Shown one piece after another: positions 1,175-34,141 of a DNA stretch of 39,165 bases. Origin of the DNA: Methylophilaceae bacterium (GTDB lineage Bacteria; Pseudomonadota; Gammaproteobacteria; Burkholderiales; Methylophilaceae); assembly GCA_028342535.1 (NCBI GenBank), contig JAOLWQ010000009.1, positions 1 through 39,165 on the forward strand, written 5' to 3'. A model generated the notes under the pieces. That model saw nothing but the letters and a program-made list of their open reading frames with translations. It was not told the origin of the DNA and searched no databases. The stretch's first letter is position 1. Each line of letters opens with the position of its first letter. A program made the position numbers and the translations under genes.

Positions 1175-1621
1175 ATGTCCACACAATCATTAGGATCAAA
1201 CCCTACAGCACAACCTTCAAAGGAACTTGAAACCTTTGATAATCCAAATACTAAAAAAGATTTTCATATTCATATGCAAATTCCTGAATTTACATGTCTT
1301 TGCCCTAAAACAGGTCAGCCAGATTTTGCTACTCTGTACCTTGATTATATCCCTGATGAACGTTGTGTGGAACTAAAAAGTCTAAAACTATACATATGGT
1401 CTTTTAGAAACGAAGGATGCTTCCATGAGGCGATCACCAACCAAATTCTTAATGACTTAGTTAAGGCTACAGAGCCAAGGTTTATGAGGCTTACAGCGAA
1501 ATTCTTTGTTAGAGGTGGCATATTTACCAATGTCACCGTAGAGCACATAAAAAAGGGTTGGAAAGCAGATTCTTATATAGATATAAATAGATTTCCTACA
1601 GAGACAAGCTATAGAGATTAA
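1175..1621 (+). CDS. queF: NADPH-dependent 7-cyano-7-deazaguanine (preQ0) reductase, short form
   Basis: QueF reduces the nitrile of preQ0 to the aminomethyl group of preQ1 in queuosine tRNA modification; it is cytosolic. The 148-residue length fits the short, single-domain family rather than the long E. coli type. The catalytic block [13 protein letters not shown] gives the thioimide-forming Cys43 and the acid Asp50, seven residues apart as in the Bacillus enzyme. [16 protein letters not shown] and the following HE form the substrate-binding part, and [14 protein letters not shown] is the T-fold strand. The ATG is chosen by family length; no strong ribosome binding site is seen. The protein looks betaproteobacterial. 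The tRNA-Ala gene starts 9 bp after the stop. Confidence 0.95.
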
Positions 1622-1630: not shown

Positions 1631-1706
1631 GGGGGTATAGCTCAGCTGGGAGAGCATCTGGATGGCATTCAGAGGGTCAGCGGTTCGATCCCGCTTACCT
1701 CCACCA
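1631..1706 (+). tRNA. tRNA-Ala (anticodon GGC)
   Basis: A complete 76-nt cloverleaf with encoded CCA. The acceptor GGGGGTA pairs with TACCTCC (one G-T). The D stem is GCTC/GAGC, and the anticodon stem TCTGG/TCAGA encloses the loop ATGGCAT, giving anticodon GGC. The T arm is CAGCGGTTCGATCCCGCTT. Its 3' end is the apparent attachment site for the repeated fragments found downstream at 3.04, 3.73, 8.32 and 11.57 kb. Confidence 0.97.
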
Positions 1707-1742
1707 ATTTACAGTCCAAATAGGTCCTAGACGGTCCGATTA
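1699..1742 (+). repeat. Attachment-site-like repeat, parental copy (tRNA-Ala 3' end plus downstream arm)
   Basis: The last 8 bases of tRNA-Ala and the following 36 bp form a 44-bp block repeated at 3726-3769 with one mismatch. A longer alignment starting in the T arm (1682-1748) matches 8319-8385 without gaps at 59 of 67 positions. This copy belongs to the intact tRNA and is taken as the junction where the downstream modules were added. I see no hairpin in it, so a shared transcription terminator is an unlikely reason for the repetition. Confidence 0.8.
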
Positions 1743-1830
1743 TTAATCTTTGTAATTATATTCTCTAATTCTAATGAATTGAAAGTGCTTCATAGCGAAT
1801 AGACTTAGAGCTTTAATACTAGATGTCAGG

Positions 1831-1836
1831 TATAAT
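1831..1836 (+). promoter_or_regulatory. Candidate -10 box for the phospholipid gene pair
   Basis: A perfect TATAAT lies 65 bp before the start of the CDP-alcohol phosphatidyltransferase gene. No convincing -35 hexamer is visible at 16-18 bp spacing, so this is a weak call. The rest of the 1743-1900 gap shows nothing else I recognise. Confidence 0.3.
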
Positions 1837-1900
1837 ATTGGCTTAGCCTAGCTTATAGCTGTCAATTCCAATTAGGTCTCATAACTAATCTGGAAACATT

Positions 1901-2554
1901 ATGGCTCATCAACCAGCTCAATTGCTGCCAAGTATCCTTTCTTTTGTTAAAGATCCTCCAAACTTATTATCGCTAGCTGGTTTATTCTGCACAATTTTTG
2001 CCATCTATTTTAGTATTTTAGGTGCATATTATCTAGCCATGATTGGGATGATATGGGCAGTTGCTTTTGACTGGTTGGATGGTATCGTCGCAAGAAAAAT
2101 GAAAGGTCGAACAGGGACCGATCGAGCTTTTGGTGCTCAGCTTGACCTGCTGATTGATATTGTAAGTTATGGAGTTGCACCCTCTATCCTCCTTTTAAGC
2201 TACGGAAAGTTTGAGCCGCTATTTTTAATTGGTGCTTTTATCATGCTTACTTCAAGTGCAATACGCTTGAGTTACTTTAGTACTTTTGGCCTCAGTGGTG
2301 GAACCAAATACACTGGCTTAGCACTTGATAACAACAGCATAATACTTGTTTTCATTTTTTTATTTGAAAGTTACTTTAGAGGAGAAGTTTTTACTGGCAT
2401 TCTTTTTATAAGTGCAATTAGTCTCGCAATATTAAATGTATCGCAAATTAAAACACCCAAGCTTTCTGGAAATCCAGCCAATGTCTATATGCTTTCAGCT
2501 TATACCCTCGTTATAACAGTTACCTATGTATGGAAAATTTATAATGGGAGTTAA
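1901..2554 (+). CDS. CDP-alcohol phosphatidyltransferase family membrane protein (PssA-like)
   Basis: A membrane enzyme of the family that transfers a phosphoalcohol from a CDP-linked donor, most like type II phosphatidylserine synthase. The catalytic signature is visible: Asp57, Asp60-Gly61, Ala64-Arg65, then Gly78, Asp82 and Asp86. The spacing between Arg65 and Gly78 is 12 residues, where the usual motif has 8, so the catalytic loop carries a four-residue insertion. About six hydrophobic segments surround it, and YGVAP follows the last Asp as in PssA. A GGAAA precedes the ATG. The next gene, 8 bp downstream, encodes a cytidylyltransferase, which suggests that the pair makes a head group through a CDP-activated alcohol. 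The exact substrate is not readable from sequence. Confidence 0.85.
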   Translation: MAHQPAQLLPSILSFVKDPPNLLSLAGLFCTIFAIYFSILGAYYLAMIGMIWAVAFDWLDGIVARKMKGRTGTDRAFGAQLDLLIDIVSYGVAPSILLLSYGKFEPLFLIGAFIMLTSSAIRLSYFSTFGLSGGTKYTGLALDNNSIILVFIFLFESYFRGEVFTGILFISAISLAILNVSQIKTPKLSGNPANVYMLSAYTLVITVTYVWKIYNGS

Positions 2555-2562
2555 TTAATAAA

Positions 2563-2994
2563 ATGCTTGTATACACCGTAGGTACTTTTGATTTACTGCA
2601 TGTAGGACATCTTGCACTATTGGAATACTGTTACACCTTAGGCGATGTTGCAGTTGGTGTAGCATCTGATGATGTGGTGAACTCTTATAAGCCAAATGTG
2701 CCTATTATCCTTTTAGCGCATAGGATGGAGATGCTTAAAGCATTGAGGTGTGTCAGTATTGTTCGACCTTATTATTCTCTTGAGTACGTGTCAGCATGTA
2801 AAGAATTGAACCCAGATATTTTTATTGTTGGTGAAGATTGGGGGAGAGGTAAGCACAATATCGACGTAGAAACTTATTTAAAGTCTAAGGGAAAGAAAAT
2901 AATTAAAGTTAATTATAGTCCACTAATATCATCAACAAAAATAAAACAAACCGTCTTAGACCAATCTCACATAATTCTTAGTGAGCATGCATAA
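2563..2994 (+). CDS. Cytidylyltransferase of the TagD / phosphoethanolamine type
   Basis: A 143-residue single-domain nucleotidyltransferase that probably activates a phosphoalcohol with CTP. The N-terminal strand VGTFDLLHVGH contains the HxGH motif at residues 13-16. The RMEML helix (Arg54) and the C-terminal ISSTKIK (122-128) match the second nucleotide-binding motif of glycerol-3-phosphate and phosphoethanolamine cytidylyltransferases. It starts 8 bp after the CDP-alcohol phosphatidyltransferase stop, with GGGAG just before that stop serving as a somewhat distant ribosome binding site, so the two are surely co-transcribed. The family acts on glycerol-, ethanolamine- or ribitol-type phosphates; which one cannot be decided here. 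Confidence 0.88.
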   Translation: MLVYTVGTFDLLHVGHLALLEYCYTLGDVAVGVASDDVVNSYKPNVPIILLAHRMEMLKALRCVSIVRPYYSLEYVSACKELNPDIFIVGEDWGRGKHNIDVETYLKSKGKKIIKVNYSPLISSTKIKQTVLDQSHIILSEHA

Positions 2995-3038
2995 AAAAAT
3001 ACATTTAAAGATAATATAGGACTGTATTGGACAATCGT

Positions 3039-3055
3039 GCTTACCTCCACCAATT
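3039..3055 (+). repeat. tRNA-Ala 3'-end fragment (copy 1)
   Basis: Seventeen bases identical to 1693-1709, the acceptor strand and CCA of tRNA-Ala plus three bases beyond. Neither the T arm upstream nor the arm downstream is preserved. It lies 45 bp after the cytidylyltransferase gene, closing the first module after the tRNA. Confidence 0.75.
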
Positions 3056-3145
3056 CTTTATTTTATCTTATCCTAAACTATCCTAAATAGTTAACCAACT
3101 CAATGATTATACTGTTTGTGAAGATATGACAAGTGAGGATTTGCC

Positions 3146-3167
3146 ACCAAGCAAATGTGAGCTTGGT
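3146..3167 (+). repeat. Small perfect inverted repeat upstream of the adhesin-E-like gene
   Basis: ACCAAGC and GCTTGGT, seven bases each, enclose an 8-nt loop 25 bp before the next start codon. No T run follows, so it does not look like an intrinsic terminator. It may be a leader hairpin or a protein-binding site. Confidence 0.4.
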
Positions 3168-3192
3168 AAATAGATTGTGATACGATTTAATT

Positions 3193-3603
3193 ATGAATAA
3201 AATATTTCTTATATTTATATTGTTGTTTCCGATGACCTCTTTTGCAGAATGGAAAAAAATTACAGAGGCTGAAGATGGTTCTACTTATTACATAGATGTT
3301 GCAAGCATCAAACAAAATAACGGATTTGTTTATTATTGGATTCTAATCGATTATCTTAAATTAACTAAAATTGGCACCTATTCAGATATTAGCGAATACA
3401 AAGTTAATTGTGTGGATGAAAAACAAACTTGGTTAAGTAATACTTTTTACAGTCAACCAATGGCCAAGGGAAAAATAATCACAGAGAAAATTCCAGTTTG
3501 GAACTATTACGGTTCCACGTTAAATGAAATTAGATATTTAACTCCAGGTTCACTTGGACATAATATATTGAAAGAAGTATGTCATTTTGAAAGTATTAAA
3601 TAA
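3193..3603 (+). CDS. Secreted surface-adhesin-E-like protein
   Basis: A 136-residue exported protein of unknown role. Residues 1-18 form a signal peptide ending SFA. The mature part has the pattern WKKI, acidic turn, STYYIDVASI, YYWILIDYL, YKVNC and a final VCHF, which resembles the surface-adhesin protein E family (PF16747) common in aquatic bacteria. Two cysteines, one central and one near the end, may form a disulfide in the periplasm. It stands alone between two tRNA-Ala 3'-end fragments, so it looks like a single-gene cargo. The family call is from pattern memory and is moderately sure; 'adhesin' should not be taken as a proven function. Confidence 0.7.
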   Translation: MNKIFLIFILLFPMTSFAEWKKITEAEDGSTYYIDVASIKQNNGFVYYWILIDYLKLTKIGTYSDISEYKVNCVDEKQTWLSNTFYSQPMAKGKIITEKIPVWNYYGSTLNEIRYLTPGSLGHNILKEVCHFESIK

Positions 3604-3725
3604 TAATTCATCAGCTGAAAATACTTTTCTTGAGGTTAAATAAAAATTGGTAAAAAGCGTCAAATAAAATTTAAAAATAAAACATTCCTTGGTTATGAAG
3701 CTCTCTGCTCATTCTGGGATAAAAG

Positions 3726-3769
3726 CTCCACCAATTTACAGTCCAAATAGGTCCTAGACGTTCCGATTA
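3726..3769 (+). repeat. tRNA-Ala 3'-end plus arm repeat (copy 2)
   Basis: This 44-bp block matches 1699-1742 with a single mismatch. It begins inside the tRNA acceptor strand (CTCCACCA) and continues through the downstream arm. The sequence before it is unrelated to the tRNA, so it is a fragment and not a gene. It is the best preserved of the arm-bearing remnants. Confidence 0.85.
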
Positions 3770-3794
3770 CAACTATCTTCTTCTCTAAATCCCT

Positions 3795-3926
3795 TTAATA
3801 ACTTAAGTAAATTAAAAGACCAAAGTACAATAGTGCAAAAAAACCAATTATCCAAAATACATATAATAAAGTTTTATGAATTTTATTAAGAACGTCCTTA
3901 ATCTCCTTTAATTCATCTTGCTTCAT
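3795..3926 (-). CDS. Small membrane protein, 43 residues
   Basis: A short gene opening MKQDELKEIKDVLNKIHK, an amphipathic helix, followed by one long hydrophobic segment ending LLIYLSY. Its ATG overlaps the TGA of the 90-residue gene upstream as ATGA, a typical translational-coupling arrangement, which is the main reason to believe it. I do not recognise a family. The pair probably acts together at the inner membrane: one protein with a long extramembrane coil, this one with a short cytoplasmic helix. Confidence 0.6.
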   Translation of the reverse strand: MKQDELKEIKDVLNKIHKTLLYVFWIIGFFALLYFGLLIYLSY

Positions 3927-4195
3927 AATTGTTTTTGACAAGCATTATTTATCGTAGTTGTAAGGTTGCTCTCAGTAGTATTTATTATTTTTTCTAAGAC
4001 CCTTACATTCTTATCAATTATATTTAAATTCTCTTGCATCCTATCAATTTTTACATTACTTTTATTTAGCTCTACTACTAAATCCCAATCATTTGCATAA
4101 GCCTTATCTATAAACACATTGCTTGTATTTAACAACAAGCCAAATGCAATGGCACCTAGTAGTATCTTTGTTGTTTTATCTACTTTTAATTCCAT
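3923..4195 (-). CDS. Membrane-anchored coiled-coil protein, unknown function
   Basis: Ninety residues. After a short charged start (MELKVDK) comes a hydrophobic segment at about 10-27 that could be a signal anchor or an uncleaved signal peptide, then a helical heptad-like stretch (about 40-85) rich in Asn, Leu, Ile and Val with a single Cys near the end. AAGGAG lies at good distance before the ATG. The stop overlaps the start of the 43-residue membrane protein. No enzymatic motif is present. It resembles short hypothetical proteins of marine bacteria, but no function can be given. Confidence 0.7.
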   Translation of the reverse strand: MELKVDKTTKILLGAIAFGLLLNTSNVFIDKAYANDWDLVVELNKSNVKIDRMQENLNIIDKNVRVLEKIINTTESNLTTTINNACQKQL

Positions 4196-4259
4196 ATTGA
4201 TTTCTCCTTATTTTTTTACTGCTTTTTTATTCAAAATTATTCTTCACTACATTAATTTA

Positions 4260-4826
4260 TTAGAAGGAATAGGTTTTATTGGGAGTAACGCAATGCGTCA
4301 AAGGTATATCATATTCTGTAATATCTTCTATACCTTTGCACGGTTTAAAAATGCTTATTCCAATTCTTTTTGCATCCTTGTGTAAAGAAGCAAAAAAACG
4401 ATCGTAAAATCCTTTTCCATAACCTACTCGATAACCTTTAAGATCAAAAGCCAAAAGAGGAGTGATAATAATATCAATACTATCGTTTTTTTGCCAAATG
4501 GGATCAATGGGTTCGGTAATATTATTTTTTGTTTGTTTTGTTTTAGTATGCTGTCTGAATTCTGCATTTTTTAGTGTCCCATCTTTAAAGTTACTAACAG
4601 GCACAACAACATTGATGTTATTTTTCCAGCAATACTGGATGATTGGTTTAGTGTTTATTTCACCTTTTGAATGGATGGGTAAAAAGCAATGAACACATTC
4701 AGGCTTATATTTTTTAATAAGCTCAATAGTGTTTTGAACAAGCTGAGATGATTCTTCTTCAAATTTGGAAGAAGATAGTTCTTGACGCTTTTCTAAATAT
4801 GTTTTTCTAACTATATCTTTTTTCAA
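4260..4826 (-). CDS. ygfA: 5-formyltetrahydrofolate cyclo-ligase
   Basis: This cytosolic enzyme converts 5-formyl-THF to 5,10-methenyl-THF with ATP, returning an inhibitory folate form to the one-carbon pool. The 188-residue length is normal. The C-terminal signature GYRVGYGKGFYDR (131-143) is the ATP- and substrate-binding loop, and LPIHSKGEI near residue 49 and the DIIITPLLAFD strand (117-128) fit the family. The N-terminal MKKDIVRKTYLEKRQEL helix is also typical. The start is a TTG at 4826; no ATG lies near and no clear ribosome binding site is seen. It is followed, 64 bp on, by the coiled-coil gene, perhaps in one transcript. Confidence 0.92.
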   Translation of the reverse strand: MKKDIVRKTYLEKRQELSSSKFEEESSQLVQNTIELIKKYKPECVHCFLPIHSKGEINTKPIIQYCWKNNINVVVPVSNFKDGTLKNAEFRQHTKTKQTKNNITEPIDPIWQKNDSIDIIITPLLAFDLKGYRVGYGKGFYDRFFASLHKDAKRIGISIFKPCKGIEDITEYDIPLTHCVTPNKTYSF

Positions 4827-5166
4827 AATAATGGCCGAAGGATAAGGTTACGAATTAAACAAATAGCATTTAATGAAACTTCTTATAATCCTCTATAACA
4901 AAATATAGATAACATATCATAATCTTGTTGGATCTTACTAAATACTATATAATTTATTTACCGTAATCACGGTCAATATCTAAAAGCAAATCACGACCAA
5001 AAGTCATACCTTGTTTTAAAAAATGATGATTAATCTCGTTCAATCAAAAATAGGATTAAAACGTGATTTACTTTTATTAATCGCTGGCACAAGTAATTAT
5101 CACTAATTATGTGTAATTACTCATGATTAATCGTCACCATAAAATTAAATAAGTAAAGGAGACAGC
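4827..5166. other. 340-bp gene-free divergent region
   Basis: No open frame of coding character is visible. The region lies between the diverging cyclo-ligase and PanB-like genes and must hold both promoters. It is full of TAATTA and ATTAATC elements, and holds one clear hairpin (5092-5121, listed separately). The last 10 bases contain the AAGGAG ribosome binding site of the PanB-like gene. Confidence 0.5.
5092..5121 (+). promoter_or_regulatory. Hairpin in the leader of the PanB-like gene
   Basis: AGTAATTA-T-CAC pairs with GTG-TAATTACT around a 7-nt AT loop: 11 base pairs with one bulged T, ending 45 bp before the start codon. As DNA it could be an operator; as RNA, a leader hairpin. I do not see the paired bulged adenosines of the known pan RNA motif, so I do not assign it to that class. 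Confidence 0.4.
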
Positions 5167-5985
5167 ATGAGCGTATTAGAAGATTTCAAAAAGTTAAAAG
5201 CAGAAGGAACGAAAATTGTAGTTGTTACTTCACATGAGTACTGGAGCGCAAAGATTCTTAATGATACAGATGTAAACGGTATTCTAATCGGTGATGATTT
5301 AAATATGGTAGTACATGGACACGAAGATACTCTGAGCTGTGATGTTGAAACAATTGCCATGCACACCAGGGCAGTAAAAAAAGGAGCAAAAGATAAATTT
5401 CTTATTGCTGGTATGCCTTTCATGAGTAACAGAAAGGGATTTAAGGAATCAATGGATAACGTTGAAATCTTAATTAAGGCTGGAGCAAATGCACTTAAAA
5501 TAGAGGGTGTTGACGGAAACGAAGAACTCTATGCACATCTATCTCAATCAGGTATCCCAGCAATCGGACACATTGGTCTTACACCATCTCACCACAATGC
5601 AATCGGTGGATTTAAAGCTCAAGGGAAAACTAAAGAAAGCGAGCTTAGTATCATTGAAGAAGCCAAAAAGCTTGATAAACTCGGATGTATTGCAATCGTT
5701 TTAGAAGCTGTTCCACAGCACGTAGGTGCGGCAGTTAGTGCCGCAGTTTCTATCCCAGTAGTTGGTGTTGGAGCAGGATTGGATGTAGATGGACAAGCAC
5801 TAGTTCTTCCAGATATGTTAGGATTTTCTACAGACTTCAAGCCTAAATTCGTAAGAACATATATGAATGGAGCTGATCTTATCAAAGAGGCTGTTAATCA
5901 GTTCGCAGCAGATGTCCATGCAAAAACTTTCCCATCGGAAAAAGAAACCTACGCACCAGCCAAAGAACAACTACCTAATAAGTAG
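5167..5985 (+). CDS. panB: PanB-like ketopantoate hydroxymethyltransferase, divergent active site
   Basis: PanB adds a hydroxymethyl group from methylene-THF to 2-oxoisovalerate, the first step to pantothenate. The 272-residue length and most of the barrel are family-like: IGDDLNMVVHG (41-51), GIPAIGHIGLTP, GGFKAQGKT, VLEAVP, VVGVGAGLDVDGQALVLPDMLG, KPKFV and the closing FPSE. Three conserved positions differ from canonical PanB. The substrate Ser after the first Asp is Asp44. The second metal-ligand Asp (DMPF) is Gly82. The KLEGG block is KIEGV. It may still be PanB, or it may have moved to a different 2-oxo acid. AAGGAG lies 5-6 bp before the ATG. No panC is adjacent. Confidence 0.82.
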   Translation: MSVLEDFKKLKAEGTKIVVVTSHEYWSAKILNDTDVNGILIGDDLNMVVHGHEDTLSCDVETIAMHTRAVKKGAKDKFLIAGMPFMSNRKGFKESMDNVEILIKAGANALKIEGVDGNEELYAHLSQSGIPAIGHIGLTPSHHNAIGGFKAQGKTKESELSIIEEAKKLDKLGCIAIVLEAVPQHVGAAVSAAVSIPVVGVGAGLDVDGQALVLPDMLGFSTDFKPKFVRTYMNGADLIKEAVNQFAADVHAKTFPSEKETYAPAKEQLPNK

Positions 5986-6024
5986 TTGTTTAATTTTTGG
6001 AGTTATTAAAGAAACTTTAACTCG

Positions 6025-6059
6025 CCTATACCCTAGCCTACCAAATAGGCTAGTATAGG
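6025..6059 (+). terminator. Hairpin between convergent genes (bidirectional terminator-like)
   Basis: CTAGCCTA and TAGGCTAG, eight bases each, pair around a 5-nt loop and are extended by an outer CCTATA/TATAGG stem with a two-base bulge. It sits 40 bp after the PanB-like stop and 29 bp from the stop of the converging small secreted protein gene. No T run follows on either strand, so termination is inferred from position and stem strength only. Confidence 0.5.
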
Positions 6060-6087
6060 ACGATCCCCTTCATATTCAGGAAAATTT

Positions 6088-6390
6088 TTAGTCTTTACCG
6101 ATTAGCCAATGCATACTGCATTTATATGTGCATACCTTCATCTTCTGCGGGCCTAGTTCCTCACATTTTGTTTGAGCAGTATCTATACCAGTGAAAGGCT
6201 CACAAAGTTTTATCATCTTTTCAATTGGATAATCTTGATTTATAGGGTCATACAATAATCTTCCTTGATAGGCATTTGAAATGCTGGGCTTATAAAAGCC
6301 TAAACTATCAGATTCACTTTTGCTTTCAGCCAAACAAAATCTTGCTGAAAAAAATATTAATAATAGAGAAAGCATAAATATGTTTCGCAT
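6088..6390 (-). CDS. Small secreted four-cysteine protein, unknown function
   Basis: One hundred residues. The first 21 form a signal peptide (MRNIFMLSLLLIFFSARFCLA). The mature part is hydrophilic and has four cysteines in its second half (in KLCEPF, TKCEEL, KVCTYKCSMHW), which fits two disulfides in the periplasm. I do not recognise a family. It lies downstream of the PQQ dehydrogenase gene on the same strand but behind a strong terminator, so it is probably transcribed separately. Confidence 0.65.
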   Translation of the reverse strand: MRNIFMLSLLLIFFSARFCLAESKSESDSLGFYKPSISNAYQGRLLYDPINQDYPIEKMIKLCEPFTGIDTAQTKCEELGPQKMKVCTYKCSMHWLIGKD

Positions 6391-6423
6391 TATAGTTATT
6401 AACTCCGCTAATTAACTTAATTT

Positions 6424-6460
6424 AAAAAAAACCCCCATCAAGATTGATGAGGGTTTTTTA
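6424..6460 (-). terminator. Rho-independent terminator of the PQQ dehydrogenase operon
   Basis: CATC/GATG and CCC/GGG pair with one mismatch, flanked by A runs on the left and T runs on the right, giving a stem followed by eight T residues when read on the minus strand. It begins 45 bp after the dehydrogenase stop. The symmetric A/T flanks could let it work in both directions. Confidence 0.8.
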
Positions 6461-6504
6461 ATATACAAATCTGCATAGCTGTTAGCTAAGCAAGTGTTTT
6501 AAAA

Positions 6505-7809
6505 CTACTGAGCTGAAACTTTATATATTTCACCTTCATCAGTAGTAGCATAAAGAGCATTATCCGGTCCCATTTCTAGTCCACGGAATCTCTTTGATAC
6601 TCCAACAGGCATATGAATCACGCTCTTGACTGATTTTCCGTCTTTAGCAAGATCAACGATATCAATACGCATACCACCTGGTGTTCCACCAAAACCAATA
6701 CCCATGATTCCAGTAGCAAAACGTCCCTCATAAATACCCCAGTTTCCACCTTTCAAGAAAGCAGCAGAACCAGTTCCTTGAGAGTAGCCGTTGTTATTCC
6801 AAGCAGGAGGCATTAGATCTTTAAAACGAGTATCACTCATTGGAGTATATGCAGCACGAACGGCAGGAGTCATACCTTCCATTTGATTCGGCTCATAACC
6901 ACAATATTGATCTGGACAAGCACCACGACCAGCTGTTTTTTCCTTAGGATCCCAACCACCATTACCGCCGTTTACTAATGCAGTAATTTCGTCGTTGTGC
7001 CAAGGTCCATGCTCAGCAGTAAATAGTTGACCATCGCTTGGACGGAAATCTAAACCTTGAACATTTCGGTGACCGTATGTGTAAATACGTTTATCGCCTT
7101 TAACCTTGTTTTTTGGATGACCTTTACCATTACCATCAATTCTTAATACTACACTGCATAGTAATGTATTGTCTTGACCACATATGCCTCTATGACGGTC
7201 TCCTGTACCAACATATAAATAGCCATCAGGACCGAAGGCCATTCTGCCACCGTTATGAGCTCCTGGGCCACCAAATGGTTGATTTGACTCAAATGGTTTG
7301 TACTGAATATCTTTAACAATATCTGTACGTCCAGAAATTTTTGTCAAATCTTTACTTACTTTGAATTTCATAACAATGTTACCGTCACATTTTTCAAAAT
7401 TAGTTTTACATCCAGAACCATGGTATTTGGTTGAGGTAGAATAAAGATAAAGTACACGGTTCTTTTTAAAGTTAGGGTCTAGTTCAACACCTAACATACC
7501 AGCTTGTCCACTACAAAAGAGATCATTACCAGAATTTTTATATCCTTTAGAGTCTTTCATACCGTAAAGCTTATTAATTTTTCCAGATGATGTTTTCACT
7601 GAAAGACCTTTACATTTTTCAGTATAAAACATAGAACCATCTGCAGTAAAAGTCATATCCCATGGATTTTCTAAACCGGACATAACTACCATTGACCCAA
7701 TCTTAGGAACATTCATTCCTTTAGATTTGTGGCCGTCAGCATAGACTGAAGTTGCAGTAAGCAACATAGCAGAAACTATGACTGTAAATACCTTACTTAA
7801 TACTTTCAT
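6505..7809 (-). CDS. Secreted PQQ-dependent aldose sugar dehydrogenase (glucose/sorbosone family)
   Basis: A 434-residue periplasmic oxidoreductase of the six-bladed beta-propeller family (PF07995) that oxidises sugars or related alcohols using PQQ. The signal peptide is about residues 1-24 (ending VYA). Family hallmarks are GLENPWDMTFTADGSMFYTEK (45-65), GPGAHNGGRMAFGPDGYLYVGTGD with the likely catalytic base His185, YTYGHRNVQGLDF with the PQQ-contacting Arg, and TAEHGPWHNDE. Several Cys pairs may be disulfides. The ATG follows AGGAGAAG, and the stop of the cytochrome gene upstream lies in this ribosome binding site, so translation is coupled. The cytochrome is the obvious electron acceptor. 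No pqq synthesis genes are in the window. Confidence 0.88.
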   Translation of the reverse strand: MKVLSKVFTVIVSAMLLTATSVYADGHKSKGMNVPKIGSMVVMSGLENPWDMTFTADGSMFYTEKCKGLSVKTSSGKINKLYGMKDSKGYKNSGNDLFCSGQAGMLGVELDPNFKKNRVLYLYSTSTKYHGSGCKTNFEKCDGNIVMKFKVSKDLTKISGRTDIVKDIQYKPFESNQPFGGPGAHNGGRMAFGPDGYLYVGTGDRHRGICGQDNTLLCSVVLRIDGNGKGHPKNKVKGDKRIYTYGHRNVQGLDFRPSDGQLFTAEHGPWHNDEITALVNGGNGGWDPKEKTAGRGACPDQYCGYEPNQMEGMTPAVRAAYTPMSDTRFKDLMPPAWNNNGYSQGTGSAAFLKGGNWGIYEGRFATGIMGIGFGGTPGGMRIDIVDLAKDGKSVKSVIHMPVGVSKRFRGLEMGPDNALYATTDEGEIYKVSAQ

Positions 7810-7821
7810 AATATACTTCTC

Positions 7822-8184
7822 CTAGTTATTAACATCATATTTCGCATCTTTAAGATACGCCGATACATTTGCAATTTCTTCATCAGTTAAAGGCTTTGCC
7901 ATCATAATCATTAAACCTGAATTAGGTCCAATTTTAGTTCCAGCCCTGTAAGTTTTAAGCTTATCAGTTATATAGGGAACTTCTTTTCCAGATATTTTTG
8001 GATAACTAGCAGCACCTTTACCTGCTGGGCCGTGACAATTAATGCATGTTTTGTTATATCTCACTTTTCCAGCTTCTGCGTCACCAGCTAATGCCTGAAA
8101 AGATGAAAGAAAAAAAATGATGCCAATAGAGCTTATTAAAATTTTAATTGCAGTGTACCTAACAAGATTGAAAAAAAAATACAA
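7822..8184 (-). CDS. Class I cytochrome c, likely electron acceptor of the PQQ dehydrogenase
   Basis: A 120-residue exported monohaem cytochrome. The CINCH haem-binding motif is at residues 47-51 and the Met axial ligand is among Met92-Met95 (GLMIMMAKPLT); EEIANVSAYL is the usual C-terminal helix. A signal peptide or membrane anchor precedes (cleavage after ALA, about residue 33). The start is uncertain: TTG at 8184 is the only candidate near the right place, no ribosome binding site is seen, and codons 3-5 lie in a run of nine T, where a sequencing slip could hide an upstream ATG. The gene ends 12 bp before the dehydrogenase, which makes a two-gene sugar-oxidation unit. Confidence 0.87.
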   Translation of the reverse strand: MYFFFNLVRYTAIKILISSIGIIFFLSSFQALAGDAEAGKVRYNKTCINCHGPAGKGAASYPKISGKEVPYITDKLKTYRAGTKIGPNSGLMIMMAKPLTDEEIANVSAYLKDAKYDVNN

Positions 8185-8223
8185 TTTAAGTATAACAATA
8201 AAAGTACAATAAATATGAAGATG

Positions 8224-8267
8224 AGCATGAAGATTATCTAAGTAAAATCATTAGATAAACTCATGCT
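8224..8267. repeat. Long imperfect stem-loop upstream of the cytochrome gene
   Basis: The arm at 8224-8241 begins AGCATGA and ends TTATCTAA. The arm at 8251-8267 is its complement at about 15 of 17 positions, with a 9-nt loop. It lies 40 bp upstream of the TTG start of cytochrome c on the minus strand. No T run follows. It could be an operator, a leader hairpin, or part of an element end, as a tRNA fragment lies only 52 bp away. Confidence 0.55.
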
Positions 8268-8318
8268 GATTTCTCAATGAAACCCAATCTAGATTAGGAA
8301 AAATTCATAAGATCGGCT

Positions 8319-8385
8319 GGTTCGATCTCGCTTAACTCTAACAATTTATAGTCCAAATAGGGCCTAGACAATCCGATTATTAATC
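8319..8385 (+). repeat. tRNA-Ala T-arm, 3' end and arm repeat (copy 3)
   Basis: A 67-bp block that aligns gap-free with 1682-1748 at 59 positions (88 percent). It retains GGTTCGATC of the T arm, a mutated acceptor strand and CCA, and nearly all of the downstream arm. The 5' half of a tRNA is absent, so it is a remnant. It overlaps by a few bases the 3' end of the methyltransferase gene. Confidence 0.85.
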
Positions 8386-9270
8386 CCCTCTTCTCTTAAC
8401 AACTAAAAGATTTACTGGCATGGTGAAGCAACTAATTCCATCTTGATGATTCGTAATAAAATATTTTTCAAGATCGGTAAGCATTTGGCTAAAGTCTTTA
8501 GGCGAGAGAACAAATGAAGCATAGAAAAAACCAGCAGCCTCTTTTGCGAGAACGCTAGGAGCTGCATTAAGACTTAGAGTTATTGGCGTTATTTTAATAT
8601 CGAAATCTTCAAAAGTTTCTGCTGTAAGTTTTTGTAGTCCCTCAGCTGTTCTGACGCGTGGGTCGCCAAGCTCAAAAACTCCATAATTCGGATAATTAGA
8701 TTGCACGTGTTTGTAAATAATATCGTGGACTTCAAGATAGCCAGGAGCAGTTTTAGGATCTCCATCAATGATGGCTGCAAAAATACCTCTTACCTTAAGT
8801 AAGCGCTTGATTGTGGCAAGCACTGGAACAACTGGATCCATCAAAGTCAATGCCCAATGACAGAAGATTACATCAAAAGATGAATTAGCAAAACAATCAA
8901 GTTTTTGTGCTGCTCCCTGATGAAATTTGGTCTCGGTATGAGCAAGTCGCTCACGTGCAAGCTTTAGTTCAGAACGATTCATATCAACACCCGAAAGCAT
9001 CAATTCAGCTCCAAAACGTTGATTACAAAGGTCTAGCAGAACGCCGCTACCACAACCAAGATCCAGAACGTGAGAATGATTTTTTTGGTCAACAATATCA
9101 GCAAGTAGCTCATAGCTATTTTTGCCATCCATATCACGACAATTCCATGCAAATGCTTCCGTGAAACCCGGATGATTATCATGAACAGCATCGAGATGTT
9201 CTCGTAAATCAGAGCTATCCGGCTGTTGGCCGCTTTCTACCTGTCGCGTCCAAGCAGATTTAATTTTCAT
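8380..9270 (-). CDS. SAM-dependent class I methyltransferase
   Basis: A 296-residue cytosolic methyltransferase of unknown substrate. The SAM-binding glycine loop VLDLGCGSG (68-76) follows a helical N-terminal segment. The acidic end of strand 2 is GVDMNRSEL, and motif IV is FDVIFCHWALTLMDP. The C-terminal half (DPKTAPGYLEVHDII onward) is not one I recognise. It lies 39 bp downstream of the EgtD-like gene on the same strand, so both are probably co-transcribed. A second methyltransferase next to a histidine trimethyltransferase suggests that both work on one small molecule. The ATG at 9270 has only a weak ribosome binding site. Confidence 0.85.
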   Translation of the reverse strand: MKIKSAWTRQVESGQQPDSSDLREHLDAVHDNHPGFTEAFAWNCRDMDGKNSYELLADIVDQKNHSHVLDLGCGSGVLLDLCNQRFGAELMLSGVDMNRSELKLARERLAHTETKFHQGAAQKLDCFANSSFDVIFCHWALTLMDPVVPVLATIKRLLKVRGIFAAIIDGDPKTAPGYLEVHDIIYKHVQSNYPNYGVFELGDPRVRTAEGLQKLTAETFEDFDIKITPITLSLNAAPSVLAKEAAGFFYASFVLSPKDFSQMLTDLEKYFITNHQDGISCFTMPVNLLVVKRRGD

Positions 9271-9309
9271 AGGTTCACTTCTAAATAGTTTAAGTACATG
9301 AATATAATT

Positions 9310-10311
9310 TTAAATAGCTTTCATCAAATAAATACTGAAAAAATTTTTCTTATCACTCCAATTTTTTAACACACTAAATCCTGATTTTTTAGCTAACTCA
9401 GAAAATTCCTTTACAGAATATTTATAAGAACATTCAGTATGTATACTTTCGCCTTTTTCAAAGAGAAACTCTAAACTATTAATTTTAATAACCTGCTTAA
9501 TATCACTAATAAGGTGCATTTCAACTCTTCCAAGTTTTTCGTTATAAAAAGCATTATGAGAAAATTGAGAGATATTTATATCAGCACCTAGTTCATTTTT
9601 CATTCTATGAAGAAGGTTCAGGTTAAAGTCAGCAGTATGACCTTCTGAATCATTATAAGCGCGATTAAAAACCTCGGCATCTTTCTTCATATCTACACCA
9701 ATTAAAAATGTACCCTCATCACCTACTAAATGTCGAGCATATCTTAAAAATTGACTAGCTTCTCCAGGCTTAAGATTGCCGATGGTAGAGCCAGGAAAAA
9801 AAGCTAGCCGCTTTAAAGATTCAAAAGAAGCCTTTTCTGGCCAGTCAATTGGCTCCATAAAATCTGCACAAATTGCTGCAACAGAAATATTATGATAATT
9901 CGAAGCTATTTCTTTCGCGGTTAATATCAGATGGGATTTTGAAATATCTATTGCAATATAATGCGACGGCTCTGGCAATGCCGATAAAAGTGCTTTGATC
10001 TTAATACTCGACCCACAGCCATATTCTACAACTACTGAACCAGGCTCAATAAGAGAATAAAGCTCTTCTTGAATATCATTGAGTAATGCTACTTCGGTTC
10101 GAGTTAAGTAATATTCTGGTGTGTCGCAAATTTTATCGAAAATTTTGGAGCCACGCTCATCATAAAAAAATTTAGGAGATATTGCTTTCTGGGGTGATGA
10201 CAATCCTTCCAAAACAGCCTCGTAAAATTCTATACTTTTCTTAGGTTTAATATCGATAAAATAGTCAAGCTCCTTACTATTCTCTTCATCCTTAATATTT
10301 TCTTCATCCAT
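9310..10311 (-). CDS. egtD: L-histidine N-alpha-methyltransferase (EgtD family)
   Basis: EgtD trimethylates histidine to hercynine, the first step of ergothioneine synthesis. The 333-residue length is standard. The N-terminal block KFFYDERGSKIFDKI and the following PEYYLTRTE (64-73) supply the substrate tyrosine. EYGCGSS (96-102) is the SAM loop, and FFPGSTIGNL (171-180) follows. RAYND gives Asn220, matching the carboxylate-binding Asn of the mycobacterial enzyme. The pair Glu293/Ser295 in HTECSYKY matches the residues that hold the imidazole. So the histidine pocket looks intact. No egtB follows; instead a methyltransferase lies downstream and an oxygenase is divergent. Methylation of a related amine remains possible. 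Confidence 0.87.
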   Translation of the reverse strand: MDEENIKDEENSKELDYFIDIKPKKSIEFYEAVLEGLSSPQKAISPKFFYDERGSKIFDKICDTPEYYLTRTEVALLNDIQEELYSLIEPGSVVVEYGCGSSIKIKALLSALPEPSHYIAIDISKSHLILTAKEIASNYHNISVAAICADFMEPIDWPEKASFESLKRLAFFPGSTIGNLKPGEASQFLRYARHLVGDEGTFLIGVDMKKDAEVFNRAYNDSEGHTADFNLNLLHRMKNELGADINISQFSHNAFYNEKLGRVEMHLISDIKQVIKINSLEFLFEKGESIHTECSYKYSVKEFSELAKKSGFSVLKNWSDKKNFFSIYLMKAI

Positions 10312-10552
10312 AAAATTAAATTCTCAAAAAAAAATTTCCTTGTTCCTTGGTTAATATTATTTTCGACTGTCACATTATCGTGGGATTTAGTAGACTGTTA
10401 AAGCAAATATAAAGGCACATAATACACATAAGTTATAGATGAAACTAATTGCGACCTAAAACTGTCCGAATAAAATCACAACCTATTAAGGCTGTCCACA
10501 ATATATTTATTTAGGAAATTAAGTTATTAATAAAAAAAAACTTTCTAATAAT
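10312..10552. promoter_or_regulatory. Divergent promoter region of the EgtD/PhyH module
   Basis: About 240 bp between the diverging EgtD-like and oxygenase genes. It must carry both promoters. I see two partly similar CTGTCC elements (near 10465 and 10491) but no clear hexamer pairs. TAGGAA at 10512-10517 is a plausible ribosome binding site for the oxygenase. The shared region suggests joint control of the three genes. Confidence 0.4.
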
Positions 10553-11536
10553 TTGCTTTTAGGGGCAAATGCACTTGGTGATGATTTAAACCAATACTGG
10601 GAGCAGGACAATCAAGCTTGGTGGGATTGGTATCTAACGCTTGCTGATAACAAAGGTAAAAGTAATGCAGCTAATTTAGTCGATATAGAGCCGATAAAGC
10701 ATTTCGACATGCCGTCCGATCGTGAACTAGAAGATGAACTTTCTACTCCTTACAACTTAACAGAGGGGCATCACCTTGCCTTTCGTCGAGACGGATTCAT
10801 CAGGCTGCCGAATGTGTTGTCTCCAGCAGCTGTAGTTCGCTTACGCGTCGAACTCATAAACCTTCTTTATAAGGCTTTCCCAGAAAGCAACAGAAGTAAT
10901 CGTTTCCTAAGTCTCGAAATGATGTGGATTGATAGCCCTATCATTAGGCAATATGTACTCAGCCCGAGAATTGCAAGAATTTCAGCAGACCTGCTTAGCG
11001 TAAAAAGTGTTCGGCTTTACCATGATAATGCACTTTCAAAGGAGCCTGGTTGTGGACGTACACCTTGGCATTACGATGACCATCATTTCCCTTTAGAGAC
11101 AAATGATGTTGTGACTGCATGGATTCCAGCACAACCAGTTCCCGAAGCTATGGGGCCTTTGTCATTTGCAAAGCCGTTAAATGTTTTTAATCTCGTCAAA
11201 AATATTAATTTTAATAAAAATGACACAAGCTACGACAAAAAAGTCACAGAAGTTTTTAAAGCAAACAACGTTGTTATTGACAGCAAACCATTTGAGATGG
11301 GTGAGGCCAGTTTTCATCATAATTTGAGTTTTCATACAGCAGGTAATAATAGAACTTCGCAGAGCAGAGTAGTTCTGGCTAATACATATTTCGCAGATGG
11401 TGCACGTGTAGTTAAGGAGCCAACAATGGTATCAGGGGACTGGCAAAAATTCATTCCTGGTGTTGAGCCAGGAGGAGTTGTAGCTAGCGAACTCAATCCA
11501 GTTTGCTGGCCAGCAAATAAAAAAAGAAGGATGTAG
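10553..11536 (+). CDS. Phytanoyl-CoA dioxygenase (PhyH) family Fe(II)/2-oxoglutarate oxygenase
   Basis: A 327-residue oxygenase that probably hydroxylates or desaturates a small molecule using Fe(II), O2 and 2-oxoglutarate. The iron ligands are visible as His173-x-Asp175 (in TPWHYDDHHF) and the distal His261 (in NLSFHTAGNNR), with Arg267 or Arg272 to hold 2-oxoglutarate. AWIPAQPVPEAMGPL is the usual strand after the first ligands. TTG at 10553 is the given start, but the frame is open back to 10523, and an ATT at 10526 lies 8 bp after AGGAA, so the protein may start nine codons earlier. It is divergent from the EgtD-like gene; both lie between two tRNA-Ala remnants. Confidence 0.88.
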   Translation: MLLGANALGDDLNQYWEQDNQAWWDWYLTLADNKGKSNAANLVDIEPIKHFDMPSDRELEDELSTPYNLTEGHHLAFRRDGFIRLPNVLSPAAVVRLRVELINLLYKAFPESNRSNRFLSLEMMWIDSPIIRQYVLSPRIARISADLLSVKSVRLYHDNALSKEPGCGRTPWHYDDHHFPLETNDVVTAWIPAQPVPEAMGPLSFAKPLNVFNLVKNINFNKNDTSYDKKVTEVFKANNVVIDSKPFEMGEASFHHNLSFHTAGNNRTSQSRVVLANTYFADGARVVKEPTMVSGDWQKFIPGVEPGGVVASELNPVCWPANKKRRM

Positions 11537-11566
11537 AAAAAAAATAAGACTGTTTAGCGCGGTGGA

Positions 11567-11596
11567 GCTTGCCTCCCTCAATTTACAGCCAGAATA
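11567..11596 (+). repeat. tRNA-Ala 3'-end plus arm repeat (copy 4, most diverged)
   Basis: Thirty bases that match 1693-1722 at 24 positions, including GCTT, CCTCC and AATTTACAG. It lies 31 bp after the oxygenase stop and just before the stop of the SDR gene. It is the most distant and least conserved of the four remnants, as expected if new modules were added next to the tRNA. Confidence 0.65.
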
Positions 11597-11602
11597 CAAA
11601 AA

Positions 11603-32503: not shown

Positions 32504-32983
32504 TTAATGTGTAGACCAATTTGAATTATATTGCCTTCTTGATGGAATTATTAAGTTTGCCTTCTCTAAAATTGCAGCAAATGCATTTAAGATTTTAAAA
32601 ATATTTCTTGCTTGATATGCCTTCAACCATCCCTGAAGAGATAATTGAGCATCTTCGTATTTATCATTCTGCAACATACATAATGCTTCTAATATCTTAA
32701 ATTCGCCATAGTGTATGTGATTGCATAACTCTGAACCAATTGGTCCCTTCTCTTCTGTACCTTCAGCAATCCCATATACTACTTCTTCAATTAAGCTCGA
32801 TATATCAGGAAGTTGATGTTGCTCTCTGCATAATTTAAATAAATCTTGTGGATCTTCTCCAGAGATTGAACATGATGCCCAATGCCTTAAGCACCAAACA
32901 ACCATAACTTCAGAATTATCTAAATCTAATGATAAAACACTTTTTTTTATAAATTCTTTAGCTATATTATTTTTAGTATTCAA
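32504..32983 (-). CDS. Helical protein of unknown function, first gene of the Fur-box operon
   Basis: A 159-residue soluble, acidic, mostly helical protein without signal peptide. It contains several His and Cys residues (WCLRHWASC, LFKLCREQHQLP, SELCNHIHYGEF, LEALCML) that could bind metal, but no pattern that I recognise. The start is a TTG at 32983; an in-frame stop lies just two codons earlier, so nothing longer is possible. As the gene directly behind a Fur-like operator, it probably has a role under iron limitation. A comparison with the unknown protein of the Fur-controlled fumC-sodA operons of Pseudomonas would be informative. Confidence 0.75.
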   Translation of the reverse strand: MNTKNNIAKEFIKKSVLSLDLDNSEVMVVWCLRHWASCSISGEDPQDLFKLCREQHQLPDISSLIEEVVYGIAEGTEEKGPIGSELCNHIHYGEFKILEALCMLQNDKYEDAQLSLQGWLKAYQARNIFKILNAFAAILEKANLIIPSRRQYNSNWSTH

Positions 32984-33019
32984 TTGTTACTTTTTCCACT
33001 TATGTATTTTTAATTTGTA

Positions 33020-33048
33020 ATTCTAAATGAGAATCATTCGCATTACAA
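33020..33048 (-). promoter_or_regulatory. Sigma-70 promoter with a Fur box in the spacer
   Basis: On the minus strand TTGTAA (rc of 33043-33048) and TAGAAT (rc of 33020-33025) are separated by exactly 17 bp. The plus-strand sequence AATGAGAATCATTCGCATT at 33026-33044 is a 9-1-9 dyad with 8 of 9 paired positions and is a close relative of Fur boxes. It fills the spacer, the usual place for repression by Fe-Fur. It lies about 40-60 bp upstream of the unknown gene, rpsD and pseudoazurin. Confidence 0.75.
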
Positions 33049-33152
33049 GTTTTTTAAAAAAATATTACAAATATTAAAATTATTCAAAAAAAGAAATACG
33101 TAAAGATTAGAAAATGAGTAAAAGATATGAAGCAGTTTAAAGAGAGTTATTA

Positions 33153-33326
33153 TTATTTAGTTAACTTGGTCCAAACAAAAATTACAATAATTAGTGCACC
33201 AATCCAAACAAAGATAAAAGCGCTACCCATTACACTTCCAATTACTGTGGTTGGATCGAATTGAGTATTAATTGCAAGACCAATTAAAGCCCAAAGAAAC
33301 AGCGCTAGAATTTTTTTTATACTCAT
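33153..33326 (-). CDS. Small two-span membrane protein, 57 residues
   Basis: Opens MSIKKILALFLWALIGLAI, then a short loop NTQFDPTTVIG, a second long hydrophobic segment and a basic end WTKLTK. The ATG lies 4 bp after the stop of the DUF3565 gene, so both are probably co-transcribed. The codons are intact and the topology is clear, though no family is recognised. Confidence 0.6.
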   Translation of the reverse strand: MSIKKILALFLWALIGLAINTQFDPTTVIGSVMGSAFIFVWIGALIIVIFVWTKLTK

Positions 33327-33330
33327 AACA

Positions 33331-33537
33331 TTATAAATCTAATACTACATGCGGATGAAGGCGACACTCTGATTCAAACTCTACATAAGTGTCTCTACTT
33401 TGAGGTGATGTAACCCACTCTCTTATTTGAAAAGGAGAGTTATGTCTAAAATGCCTTGAATGGCCACAAGATAAATCTGTTACCCAATCTTTAATTTCAT
33501 CTTGATGAAAGCCAGTAATTATTGTTTTCATATACAT
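33331..33537 (-). CDS. DUF3565 family protein
   Basis: A 68-residue soluble protein. ITGFHQDEIKDWVTDLSCGHSRHFRHNSPFQIREWV matches the DUF3565 pattern: GFHQDE, LxCGHxxHxRH, P..R.W. The clustered Cys and His (one Cys, three or four His) suggest metal binding, and a second Cys near the end (ESECRLHPH) would complete a site. Function unknown. The ATG at 33537 or the one two codons later (33531) could both serve; the ribosome binding site does not decide. Confidence 0.82.
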   Translation of the reverse strand: MYMKTIITGFHQDEIKDWVTDLSCGHSRHFRHNSPFQIREWVTSPQSRDTYVEFESECRLHPHVVLDL

Positions 33538-33565
33538 TCTTCTCTTCTATTATTTGAAGTTGCAA

Positions 33566-33640: not shown

Positions 33641-33656
33641 AATTTACCTTTAGGCA

Positions 33657-33692: not shown

Positions 33693-33702
33693 AAGAACAG
33701 TT

Positions 33703-34077: not shown

Positions 34078-34103
34078 CTTAATCTCCCTTTTATATTAGA
34101 CCA

Positions 34104-34134: not shown

Positions 34135-34141
34135 AAGTGAA

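What the first reader, a model, noticed from the sequence alone, without database searches (positions are those of the whole stretch)
1631..11600. Serial tRNA-Ala 3'-end remnants mark an accretion island with an age gradient
The 3' end of tRNA-Ala(GGC) and the arm after it recur at 3039-3055, 3726-3769, 8319-8385 and 11567-11596, all in the tRNA's orientation. In the three arm-bearing copies similarity falls with distance: 43/44, 59/67, 24/30. In each the 5' side is foreign, the 3' side is tRNA end plus arm. This is what repeated insertion at the tRNA 3' end by elements with the same attP arm would give, with new cargo pushed in next to the tRNA. Cargo-bearing tRNA-anchored elements (for example tycheposons of Prochlorococcus) are known; a similar layered system in an AT-rich betaproteobacterium-like genome would be new to me.
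Basis: partly seen in the sequence, partly recalled or inferred. Interest (0 to 1): 0.85.

Follow-up and report, generated by a model that had tools for sequence, protein, structure and literature searches.

The report
Integrase-free gene cassettes stacked behind tRNA-Ala
In a small methylotroph genome, short gene cassettes with what look like their own attachment ends but no integrase gene are stacked behind one tRNA-Ala gene, and the same cassettes appear in other orders in related species, which points to gene exchange run by an enzyme supplied from elsewhere.

Summary
The repeats are real, at the stated places, and not chance. They are junctions between tandem elements inserted at the 3' end of tRNA-Ala(GGC). 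Of 23 genomes of the genus mapped, 12 have left-arm junctions, and the same cassettes recur in different orders. Similarity blocks stop at the junctions. One relative lacks the window's two tRNA-proximal cassettes with a clean join. Nine cargos share one right arm and eight share one left arm, training sites included. No tyrosine or serine recombinase hit lies in an array examined; the window's own genome has two, read as XerC and XerD. Cassette synonymous sites are more alike between species than those of the anchor genes.

Best reading: integrase-less, attP-bearing cassettes captured at a tRNA, moved in trans by a helper not found here.

The 'age gradient' fails in G046, and the 3039 copy is not armless: it has another arm type. 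Precedents exist (Dehalococcoides ssrA islands; tRNA-end repeats in Ca. Methylopumilus), so I call it a new variant of a known kind.

The parts
1175..1621 (+). queF (with SMC 1-1089 the left anchor of the island)
   Evidence: homologues next to tRNA-Ala(GGC) in relatives; gene names recalled from the sequence, not from a family search
1631..1706 (+). tRNA-Ala(GGC), the inferred attB target; its last 13-17 nt with the next bases (GCTTACCTCCACCAATT) are the core
1707..1742 (+). right arm type A (P'), three GTCC motifs 10 nt apart
   Evidence: PA model 45.1 bits (training site); lag-10 matches 11/23, no shuffle control
1901..2994 (+). cassette E1 cargo: CDP-alcohol phosphatidyltransferase + cytidylyltransferase-like
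   Evidence: Pfam PF01066, PF01467; block 1693-3055 = G042_C14 3706-5071, 96.2%
3010..3055 (+). junction: left arm (P) of E1 + core 17/17
   Evidence: P model 34.4 bits (training site)
3056..3100 (+). right arm type C of the next cassette
   Evidence: alignment A2 with G021, G015, G017
3193..3603 (+). cassette cargo: surface-adhesin protein E family
   Evidence: Pfam PF16747
3726..3769 (+). junction: right half of core + type A arm (left half of core lost)
   Evidence: 98% over 44 nt to the tRNA locus; PA 42.4 bits (training site)
3923..4195 (-). cassette cargo orf3923 (90 aa, no Pfam family at E<=0.001); directly behind the tRNA in G044
4260..4826 (-). 5-formyltetrahydrofolate cyclo-ligase, recurrent right neighbour of arrays in relatives
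   Evidence: Pfam PF01812; junction sequence shared by G017, G024, G018, G021
5167..5985 (+). panB
   Evidence: Pfam PF02548
6505..8184 (-). glucose/sorbosone dehydrogenase + cytochrome c
   Evidence: Pfam PF07995, PF00034
8303..8385 (+). junction: displaced tRNA 3' half (from about position 37) + type A arm
   Evidence: E=3.1e-19 to query positions 37-118; PA 37.8 bits (training site)
8380..11536 (.). cassette E3 cargo: SAM methyltransferase (-), EgtD-like histidine methyltransferase (-), PhyH dioxygenase (+)
   Evidence: Pfam; block 8330-11586 = G017_C56 1905-5139, 82.9%
11539..11596 (+). junction: left arm of E3 (GTGGAG-CTTGC-CTCC) + core + degenerate type A arm
   Evidence: P model 25.3 bits (training site); 24/30

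Best explanation
The region is a tandem array of small integrative cassettes stacked at the 3' end of tRNA-Ala(GGC). Each reads, from the tRNA: right attP arm (P'), one to a few cargo genes, left attP arm (P) with half a core, then the next core. Recombination between the attP of a circular cassette and the tRNA 3' end (attB) would insert it next to the tRNA, restore the tRNA, and push the older core and arm outwards. The reverse reaction between two neighbouring junctions would free any cassette with a complete attP, so cargo needs no integrase of its own. SHOWN: junction anatomy, module boundaries at the cores, one clean absence state, alternative orders, sharing between species, no recombinase hit in the arrays examined. 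INFERRED: that the arms are integrase sites, that the recombinase is a tyrosine integrase acting in trans from a helper (phage, satellite or plasmid) not present in these assemblies, and that transfer between cells rides on that helper or on DNA uptake.
For: Boundaries: E1 (window 1693-3055) aligns to G042_C14 3706-5071 at 96.2% and stops at the core on both sides; E3 (8330-11586) aligns to G017_C56 1905-5139 core to core; G024 1755-3532 and 3506-5035 align to G017_C56 138-1919 and 5109-6639, so E3 is a clean 3.2-kb extra at one core. Absence state: G044 joins tRNA + type A arm straight into orf3923; the window has 2,027 bp more at that point (605 of 692 aligned positions identical over the joined flanks). 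Orders: E2 (weak methyltransferase match + gamma-glutamyltranspeptidase) is tRNA-proximal in G024, G018, G014 but inner in G002 and G046. Arms: nine cargos behind a right arm of 30 bits or more, eight in front of a left arm of 15 bits or more, training sites included; 9 held-out left-arm sites, 0 on the - strand. Core half-sites: mean 3.4 of 6 matches to GTGGAG in 20 hand-picked junctions vs 1.33 at random places; the motif was noticed before it was tested. Recombinases: no PF00589 hit falls in an array examined; 20 of 31 genomes have at most two hits; own genome two over the cut-off; PF00239 in 1 of 31, elsewhere. Exchange: fourfold-site identity G024-G002 queF 39.5% vs E2 62-63%; window-G044 SMC/queF 30-35% vs orf3923 75% (20 sites); close pair G018-G014 84-85% anchors vs 83-85% E2. 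Population variation: two G012 contigs overlap by exactly 55 nt, the first ending 1 nt past the tRNA, as at an assembly-graph branch.
Against: No helper integrase was found: exact arm, core and palindrome patterns in the viral contigs gave no related attP. No circular form, read data or excision was seen. 11 of 23 genomes mapped have no left-arm hit of 12 bits or more. Several junctions are degenerate, and 8 of 20 cores have 4 or more of 6 palindrome matches. In G002 the restriction-modification genes and E2 share one 8-kb interval with no junction between them. FTHFcl-panB changes order and strand between genomes, so the original flank is not certain. panB, not shown to be a cassette, is as similar as E1 between window and G042 (96.6% vs 96.3%), where the Xer locus is 85.2%. 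Between window and G002, island genes GSDH, CysMet and FMO, not shown to be cassettes, also exceed the anchors (61-77% vs 38-46% fourfold), while POT, PatB and DASS (42-49%) do not. Several arrays are broken over contigs and some genomes are incomplete, so a resident integrase could be missing; G001 has a PF00589 hit about 46 kb downstream of its tRNA, beyond the stretch mapped as its array. A very divergent integrase would escape Pfam; such a case is reported for picocyanobacteria (PMC10187409, passages seen).
Confidence: 0.7

Rival explanations
1. Ordinary serial insertion of autonomous islands or prophages at the tRNA, each of which later lost its integrase and most genes; what is left are decayed remnants kept for useful cargo, and present-day spread is vertical or by homologous recombination.
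For: Degenerate junctions (window 3726, 11567) and fourfold identities of about 60-70% for E2 and E3 in many pairs fit old events; tRNA-anchored integrase elements are common in general.
Against: No PF00589 hit, even partial, at E<=0.001 lies in the arrays examined, yet arms persist next to unrelated cargos, and E1 is 91-92% identical at fourfold sites between window and G042 with boundaries at the cores.
Confidence: 0.2
2. Cassettes are swapped by RecA-type homologous recombination between the repeats (17-nt core plus about 35-nt arm), after uptake of DNA, with no site-specific recombinase at work today.
For: Core plus type A arm is a 44-54-nt stretch 91-95% identical between window and G042; no integrase hit in the arrays.
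Against: It does not explain why unrelated cargos share left arms with partly palindromic half-sites, nor why cassettes with another right arm (type C) share the same core point. Crossovers in such short repeats would be inefficient (general knowledge).
Confidence: 0.1

Closest known systems
Dehalococcoides ssrA-specific genomic islands (McMurdie et al. 2011, PMC3146451; passages seen)
   Same: Tandem islands at the 3' end of one RNA gene, separated by a 20-bp direct repeat of that gene; 15 of 31 islands lack the integration module and are suggested to be cis-mobilizable elements moved through accretion.
   Different: There 16 of 31 islands carry an integration module with a serine recombinase in the same arrays; here no array examined has a recombinase hit, the target is tRNA-Ala, and attP-like arms on both sides recur around unrelated cargos.
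Additive island fGI-2 and tRNA-Met 'tycheposon' of Ca. Methylopumilus / OM43 (Layoun et al. 2024, PMC10872708; outline, abstract and passages seen)
   Same: Same family; recurring 20-nt tRNA-end repeats with variable, mostly unknown cargo.
   Different: Other tRNAs (Lys, Met); fGI-2 reported only from two freshwater species; no arms, module shuffling or integrase question in the passages I saw; 'tRNA-Ala', 'Ala' and 'alanine' occur 0 times in the main text (supplements not seen).
Tycheposons of Prochlorococcus (Hackl et al. 2023; not held; recalled and second-hand)
   Same: tRNA-anchored cargo elements in islands of streamlined marine bacteria.
   Different: Described as 4-200 kb with a tyrosine recombinase (as cited by Layoun et al.); the delimited cassettes here are about 0.7-5.3 kb with none.
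Integron cassette arrays without integrase, CALIN (review PMC11389934, passages seen)
   Same: Arrays of small cargo units with a recombination site each, dependent on an integrase in trans.
   Different: The site is a tRNA 3' end with arms; no integrase hit at the array; attC structure not tested.
Marine phage satellites (VEIME, PICMI; search listing, abstract start and review passages only; VEIME paper not held)
   Same: Small integrative elements that depend on helpers.
   Different: Those carry their own recombinase as far as recalled; none seen here.

Membership tests
tRNA-anchored integrative elements (general) | insertion at a tRNA 3' end that restores the tRNA and leaves a displaced 3' fragment at the far end | tested here: met
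   intact tRNA plus displaced cores at module ends; clean absence state in G044
tRNA-anchored integrative elements (general) | cognate integrase gene inside the element | tested here: not met
   no PF00589 or PF00239 hit within an array examined; ten cargo proteins each gave no integrase match in Pfam at E<=10 or PHROGs at E<=0.01, bar the AlpA/excisionase-like gene at window 38477, outside the cassettes
cis-mobilizable elements (CIME) / accretion | flanked by attL/attR-like sites, no integration or transfer genes | tested here: met
   for integration genes; transfer genes not searched for separately
cis-mobilizable elements (CIME) / accretion | tandem with an autonomous integrase-bearing element using the same att site | tested here: not met
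   none in the arrays examined; could exist in unsampled strains or missing contigs
tycheposon | tyrosine recombinase in the element | tested here: not met
tycheposon | size 4-200 kb (as cited in PMC10872708) | tested here: not met
   most delimited cassettes are below 4 kb; range 0.7-5.3 kb core to core, plus one 8-kb interval in G002
tycheposon | tRNA anchor with metabolic or defence cargo | tested here: met
integron / CALIN | integron integrase or attC sites | tested here: inconclusive
   no integrase hit at the array; attC folding not tested

The most novel reading that the evidence does not exclude
A tRNA gene serves as the primary landing site (like attI) of a cassette-capture system without a resident recombinase: free-standing gene cassettes, each with a complete attP and no integrase, are exchanged between species of a streamlined genus by a shared helper integrase acting in trans. 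It would be an integron-like gene bank run from outside the cell's own genome.
Probability: 0.45. Interest if true: 0.82.

Novelty: new variant of a known kind. Interest (0 to 1): 0.62.

Why it matters
Streamlined aquatic bacteria lose most mobile elements yet keep exchanging adaptive genes, and how they do so is open. Here the exchange units, their ends and an absence state are visible, so the question becomes testable: find the integrase that recombines this attP with tRNA-Ala. The cargo looks adaptive: restriction-modification, a weak GmrSD-like match, metal regulator/HMA, gamma-glutamyltranspeptidase, histidine methyltransferase. It also gives a marker (left arm + core + right arm) for finding such cassettes in metagenomes.

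Tried and rejected
Rejected: (a) arm as a dispersed repeat - found only at this island in the own genome and not in the other 299 genomes of the order sample or the 89 genomes of other genera in the family sample (stricter filters there; 7 of the 10 other same-genus genomes also gave none at E<=0.001, as in the laxer). (b) A third tyrosine recombinase in the own genome: the weak third hit (13.6 bits) lies in a DEAD-box helicase-like frame (my reading). (c) Integrases elsewhere in the genus: of 15 stretches looked at, some lie beside tRNA-Arg, -His, -Phe or -Met genes, none in the tRNA-Ala arrays mapped. (d) Viral helper: two arm patterns and the palindrome pattern gave 0 matches each, the 17-nt core 4; of these two follow a tRNA-Ala 3' half with other flanks (integrases there not looked for) and two lie inside phage coding sequence. 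(e) Window 1693-3788 in phage and plasmid records: no match. EgtD of E3 in viral contigs: none. (f) A whole second tRNA at 8303: only the 3' half is recognisable, so I read it as a displaced fragment. (g) Age gradient as a general rule: fails in G046. (h) XerCD/dif-type modules: considered, set aside because the core is the tRNA end; not tested.

Print check: 'tycheposon' gave 8 papers; OM43 + tRNA + genomic island 11; OM43 + tRNA-Ala 1, on Dehalococcoides. Further searches: tyrosine recombinase/cargo/satellite, integrase-less, accretion, cis-mobilizable; of these I looked into PMC10872708, PMC9004378, PMC3146451, PMC11389934 and PMC10187409 by passages only. Absence from print rests on these open-licence searches.

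Rows dropped or limits: nhmmer training used 14 hand-chosen junctions (window 3733, window 8343 and G016 7325 left out of the left-arm model); held-out counts exclude the training sites. One search prints 25 of 30 tracts, each to about 15.5 kb past the tRNA or contig start. The 30 tracts come from 23 genomes where a tRNA-Ala locus or arm hit was fetched; the other 8 of 31 were not mapped. The whole-junction model hits 25 of 31 genomes at E<=1; weaker hits away from the tRNA (for example G015 about 78 kb off, E 4.7e-5) were not followed up. In one search the plain 17-nt scan recovers only one of the four tRNA-Ala copies, so it is a weak test for arrays at other tRNAs. In one search only gene pairs with more than 60 aligned residues were listed.


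Full report
WHAT IS THERE. The window is one whole contig (G000:C2; 39,165 bases of a 1,194,772-base assembly in 17 contigs). Its left end holds SMC and queF (names recalled) and a tRNA-Ala(GGC) at 1631-1706. The 3' end of this tRNA recurs downstream at 3039, 3726, 8319 and 11567 as reported. Six stretches of named genomes that carry the type A arm are titled Methylophilaceae (five) or Nitrosomonadales (one), so the genome belongs to that group; 'OM43' is my recall.

THE REPEATS ARE JUNCTIONS. Aligning copies from the window and relatives shows three parts: a left arm (majority TATAGAACAAT.G.G), a core (GCTTACCTCCACCAATT, the tRNA end), and a right arm, mostly type A (ACAGTCCAAATAGGTCCTAGACGGTCCGATTAT). 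Type A contains GTCC three times at 10-nt spacing (11 of 23 positions match at lag 10, the best of lags 5-15, no shuffle control), as arm-type integrase sites can do; the site reading is inference. A second right arm (type C) follows the 3039 copy and is shared with G021 and G015, which carry other cargo there. The left half-site tends towards the inverted repeat of CTCCAC around CTTAC (mean 3.4 of 6 matches to GTGGAG in 20 hand-picked junctions against 1.33 at random places; 8 of 20 have 4 or more). Inverted half-sites round a short spacer are typical of tyrosine integrase cores (general knowledge).

NOT CHANCE, NOT DISPERSED. A left-arm profile trained on 14 junctions finds 9 further sites at 12 bits or more in 764 kb of tracts, all in tRNA orientation, none on the other strand and none in reversed sequence. 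Counting training sites, 12 of 23 genomes mapped have such a site; G001, G003, G006, G008, G011, G015, G016, G019, G022, G043 and G044 do not. In the window's own genome both arm profiles hit only this island. Among its 31 tRNAs a plain 17-nt scan shows, besides tRNA-Ala, one 14/17 match 4.5 kb behind a tRNA-Met, one 14/17 match upstream of a tRNA-Ser, and two neighbouring tRNA-Arg genes with identical ends. A sequence-only model of the whole junction hits 25 of 31 genus genomes at E<=1; the hits at E<=1e-5 are at the tRNA-Ala locus, on contigs carrying the same cassettes, or on short contigs not linked to a tRNA (G042:C15, G021:C157). No genome of another genus in the family and order samples is hit at E<=0.001.

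MODULES MOVE AS UNITS. Similarity between genomes starts and stops at cores in the cases compared. E1 (phosphatidyltransferase + cytidylyltransferase) sits next to the tRNA in the window but between E2 and E3 in G042, 96.2% identical from core to core. E3 (methyltransferase, EgtD-like, PhyH) is a clean 3.2-kb extra between E2 and FTHFcl in G017 compared with G024. E2 (weak methyltransferase match + gamma-glutamyltranspeptidase) is tRNA-proximal in three genomes and inner in others. G044 continues from tRNA and type A arm straight into orf3923; the window has E1 and the adhesin-E cassette inserted there. In G044 E3 has lost its cores: the aligned block is 8377-11511 only. Other cargo includes an NgoPII-type restriction-modification set (G002), a protein with a below-cut-off GmrSD match (G046) and a metal regulator with an HMA-domain protein (G002). 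Delimited cassettes measure about 0.7-5.3 kb core to core; in G002 one 8-kb interval holds the restriction-modification genes and E2 with no junction between (positions).

NO RESIDENT RECOMBINASE SEEN. PF00589 over 31 genus genomes: 20 have at most two hits and 11 have three or more; no hit lies in an array mapped, though G001 has one about 46 kb downstream of its tRNA. The own genome has two over the cut-off, by size and score XerC and XerD (my reading), plus a weak hit in a helicase-like frame. PF00239 hits 1 of 31, not at an array. Ten cargo proteins gave no integrase match at E<=10 in Pfam; of ten proteins put to PHROGs only the AlpA-like gene at window 38477 matched integration/excision families. 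Viral contigs gave no helper.

EXCHANGE ACROSS SPECIES. Fourfold-degenerate identity of the anchor genes SMC and queF is 30-46% in the 8 more distant pairs that have them, while E2, E3 and orf3923 reach 62-85%: G024-G002 queF 39.5% (43 sites) vs E2 62-63%; G024-G018 queF 42.2% vs E2 80-85%; window-G044 SMC 29.7% and queF 35.0% vs orf3923 75% (20 sites) and E3 63-69%. E1 is 91-92% between window and G042, for which no anchor was available. In the close pair G018-G014 anchors (84-85%) and E2 (83-85%) agree, as vertical descent would give. Caveats: only two anchor genes; some island genes not delimited as cassettes also exceed the anchors (window-G002 GSDH 69%, CysMet 61%, FMO 77%; window-G044 FTHFcl 82%, panB 71%), others do not (window-G002 POT, PatB, DASS 42-49%; window-G044 orf6088 46%, 13 sites); and the Xer locus of G042 is 85.2% identical to the window's genome over 2,337 nt, so G042 is a fairly close genome.

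POLARITY AND AGE. In the comparisons that can be read, extra modules sit on the tRNA side (window vs G044; G002 and G046 vs G024). In G017 E3 lies between E2 and FTHFcl, which needs E3 to have come first there. Decay with distance holds in three arrays and fails in G046. So tRNA-side insertion is likely; an age gradient readable from repeat decay is not established.

MECHANISM. Shown: boundaries at the cores, displaced cores, one absence state, shuffling, no recombinase hit in the arrays. Inferred: tyrosine integrase, action in trans, a mobile helper. The 55-nt overlap of two G012 contigs ending just past the tRNA is what an assembly-graph branch at the insertion point would leave, a hint of mixed states in one population, not proof.

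COMPARISON. The nearest published system seen is the ssrA islands of Dehalococcoides, tandem at one RNA gene with 15 of 31 lacking integration modules. In the same family, Layoun et al. found tRNA-end repeats and a tRNA-Met 'tycheposon'. What differs here is the absence of a recombinase hit in the arrays examined together with attP-like arms around unrelated cargos, which makes the units look like cassettes. I therefore file it as a new variant of a known kind, not as a tycheposon or an integron.

Noticed in passing
window 38477-38689: Orphan AlpA/excisionase-like gene (Pfam HTH_17/AlpA, PHROG 'excisionase and transcriptional regulator'); matches in 17 of 31 genus genomes at E<=0.001, six of them on tRNA-Ala island stretches (G001, G003, G006, G011, G012, G016). 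Could be a directionality factor kept without its integrase.
   Followed up: partly
window 32504-39165: The right end of the contig looks like a second variable island behind rpsD; in G022 the matching place carries a 405-aa tyrosine integrase and small proteins with similar starts (L093).
   Followed up: partly
L185 1799-3125: The E1 gene pair recurs (64% for the phosphatidyltransferase) on a viral contig with 51% G+C, so this pair travels with mobile DNA elsewhere too.
   Followed up: partly
window 34142-37331 and L093 481-4477: Runs of small proteins with similar signal-peptide-like starts (MKKLL...LLLIP) in islands of this genus.
   Followed up: no
G016 tract 7297-7328 and G001 tract 6422: tRNA-Ala remnants whose left side resembles the T-arm of the tRNA, perhaps from integrases that cut further 5' in the tRNA.
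   Followed up: no
PMC10872708, Fig. 4F legend: The published 20-nt fGI-2 repeat reads, reverse-complemented, like the 5' end of a tRNA rather than its 3' end (my reading of the printed letters).
   Followed up: no
window 8380-11536: EgtD-like histidine methyltransferase with a second methyltransferase and a PhyH dioxygenase, whole or in part in 8 genomes mapped (own included): a possible small-molecule pathway as cassette cargo.
   Followed up: no
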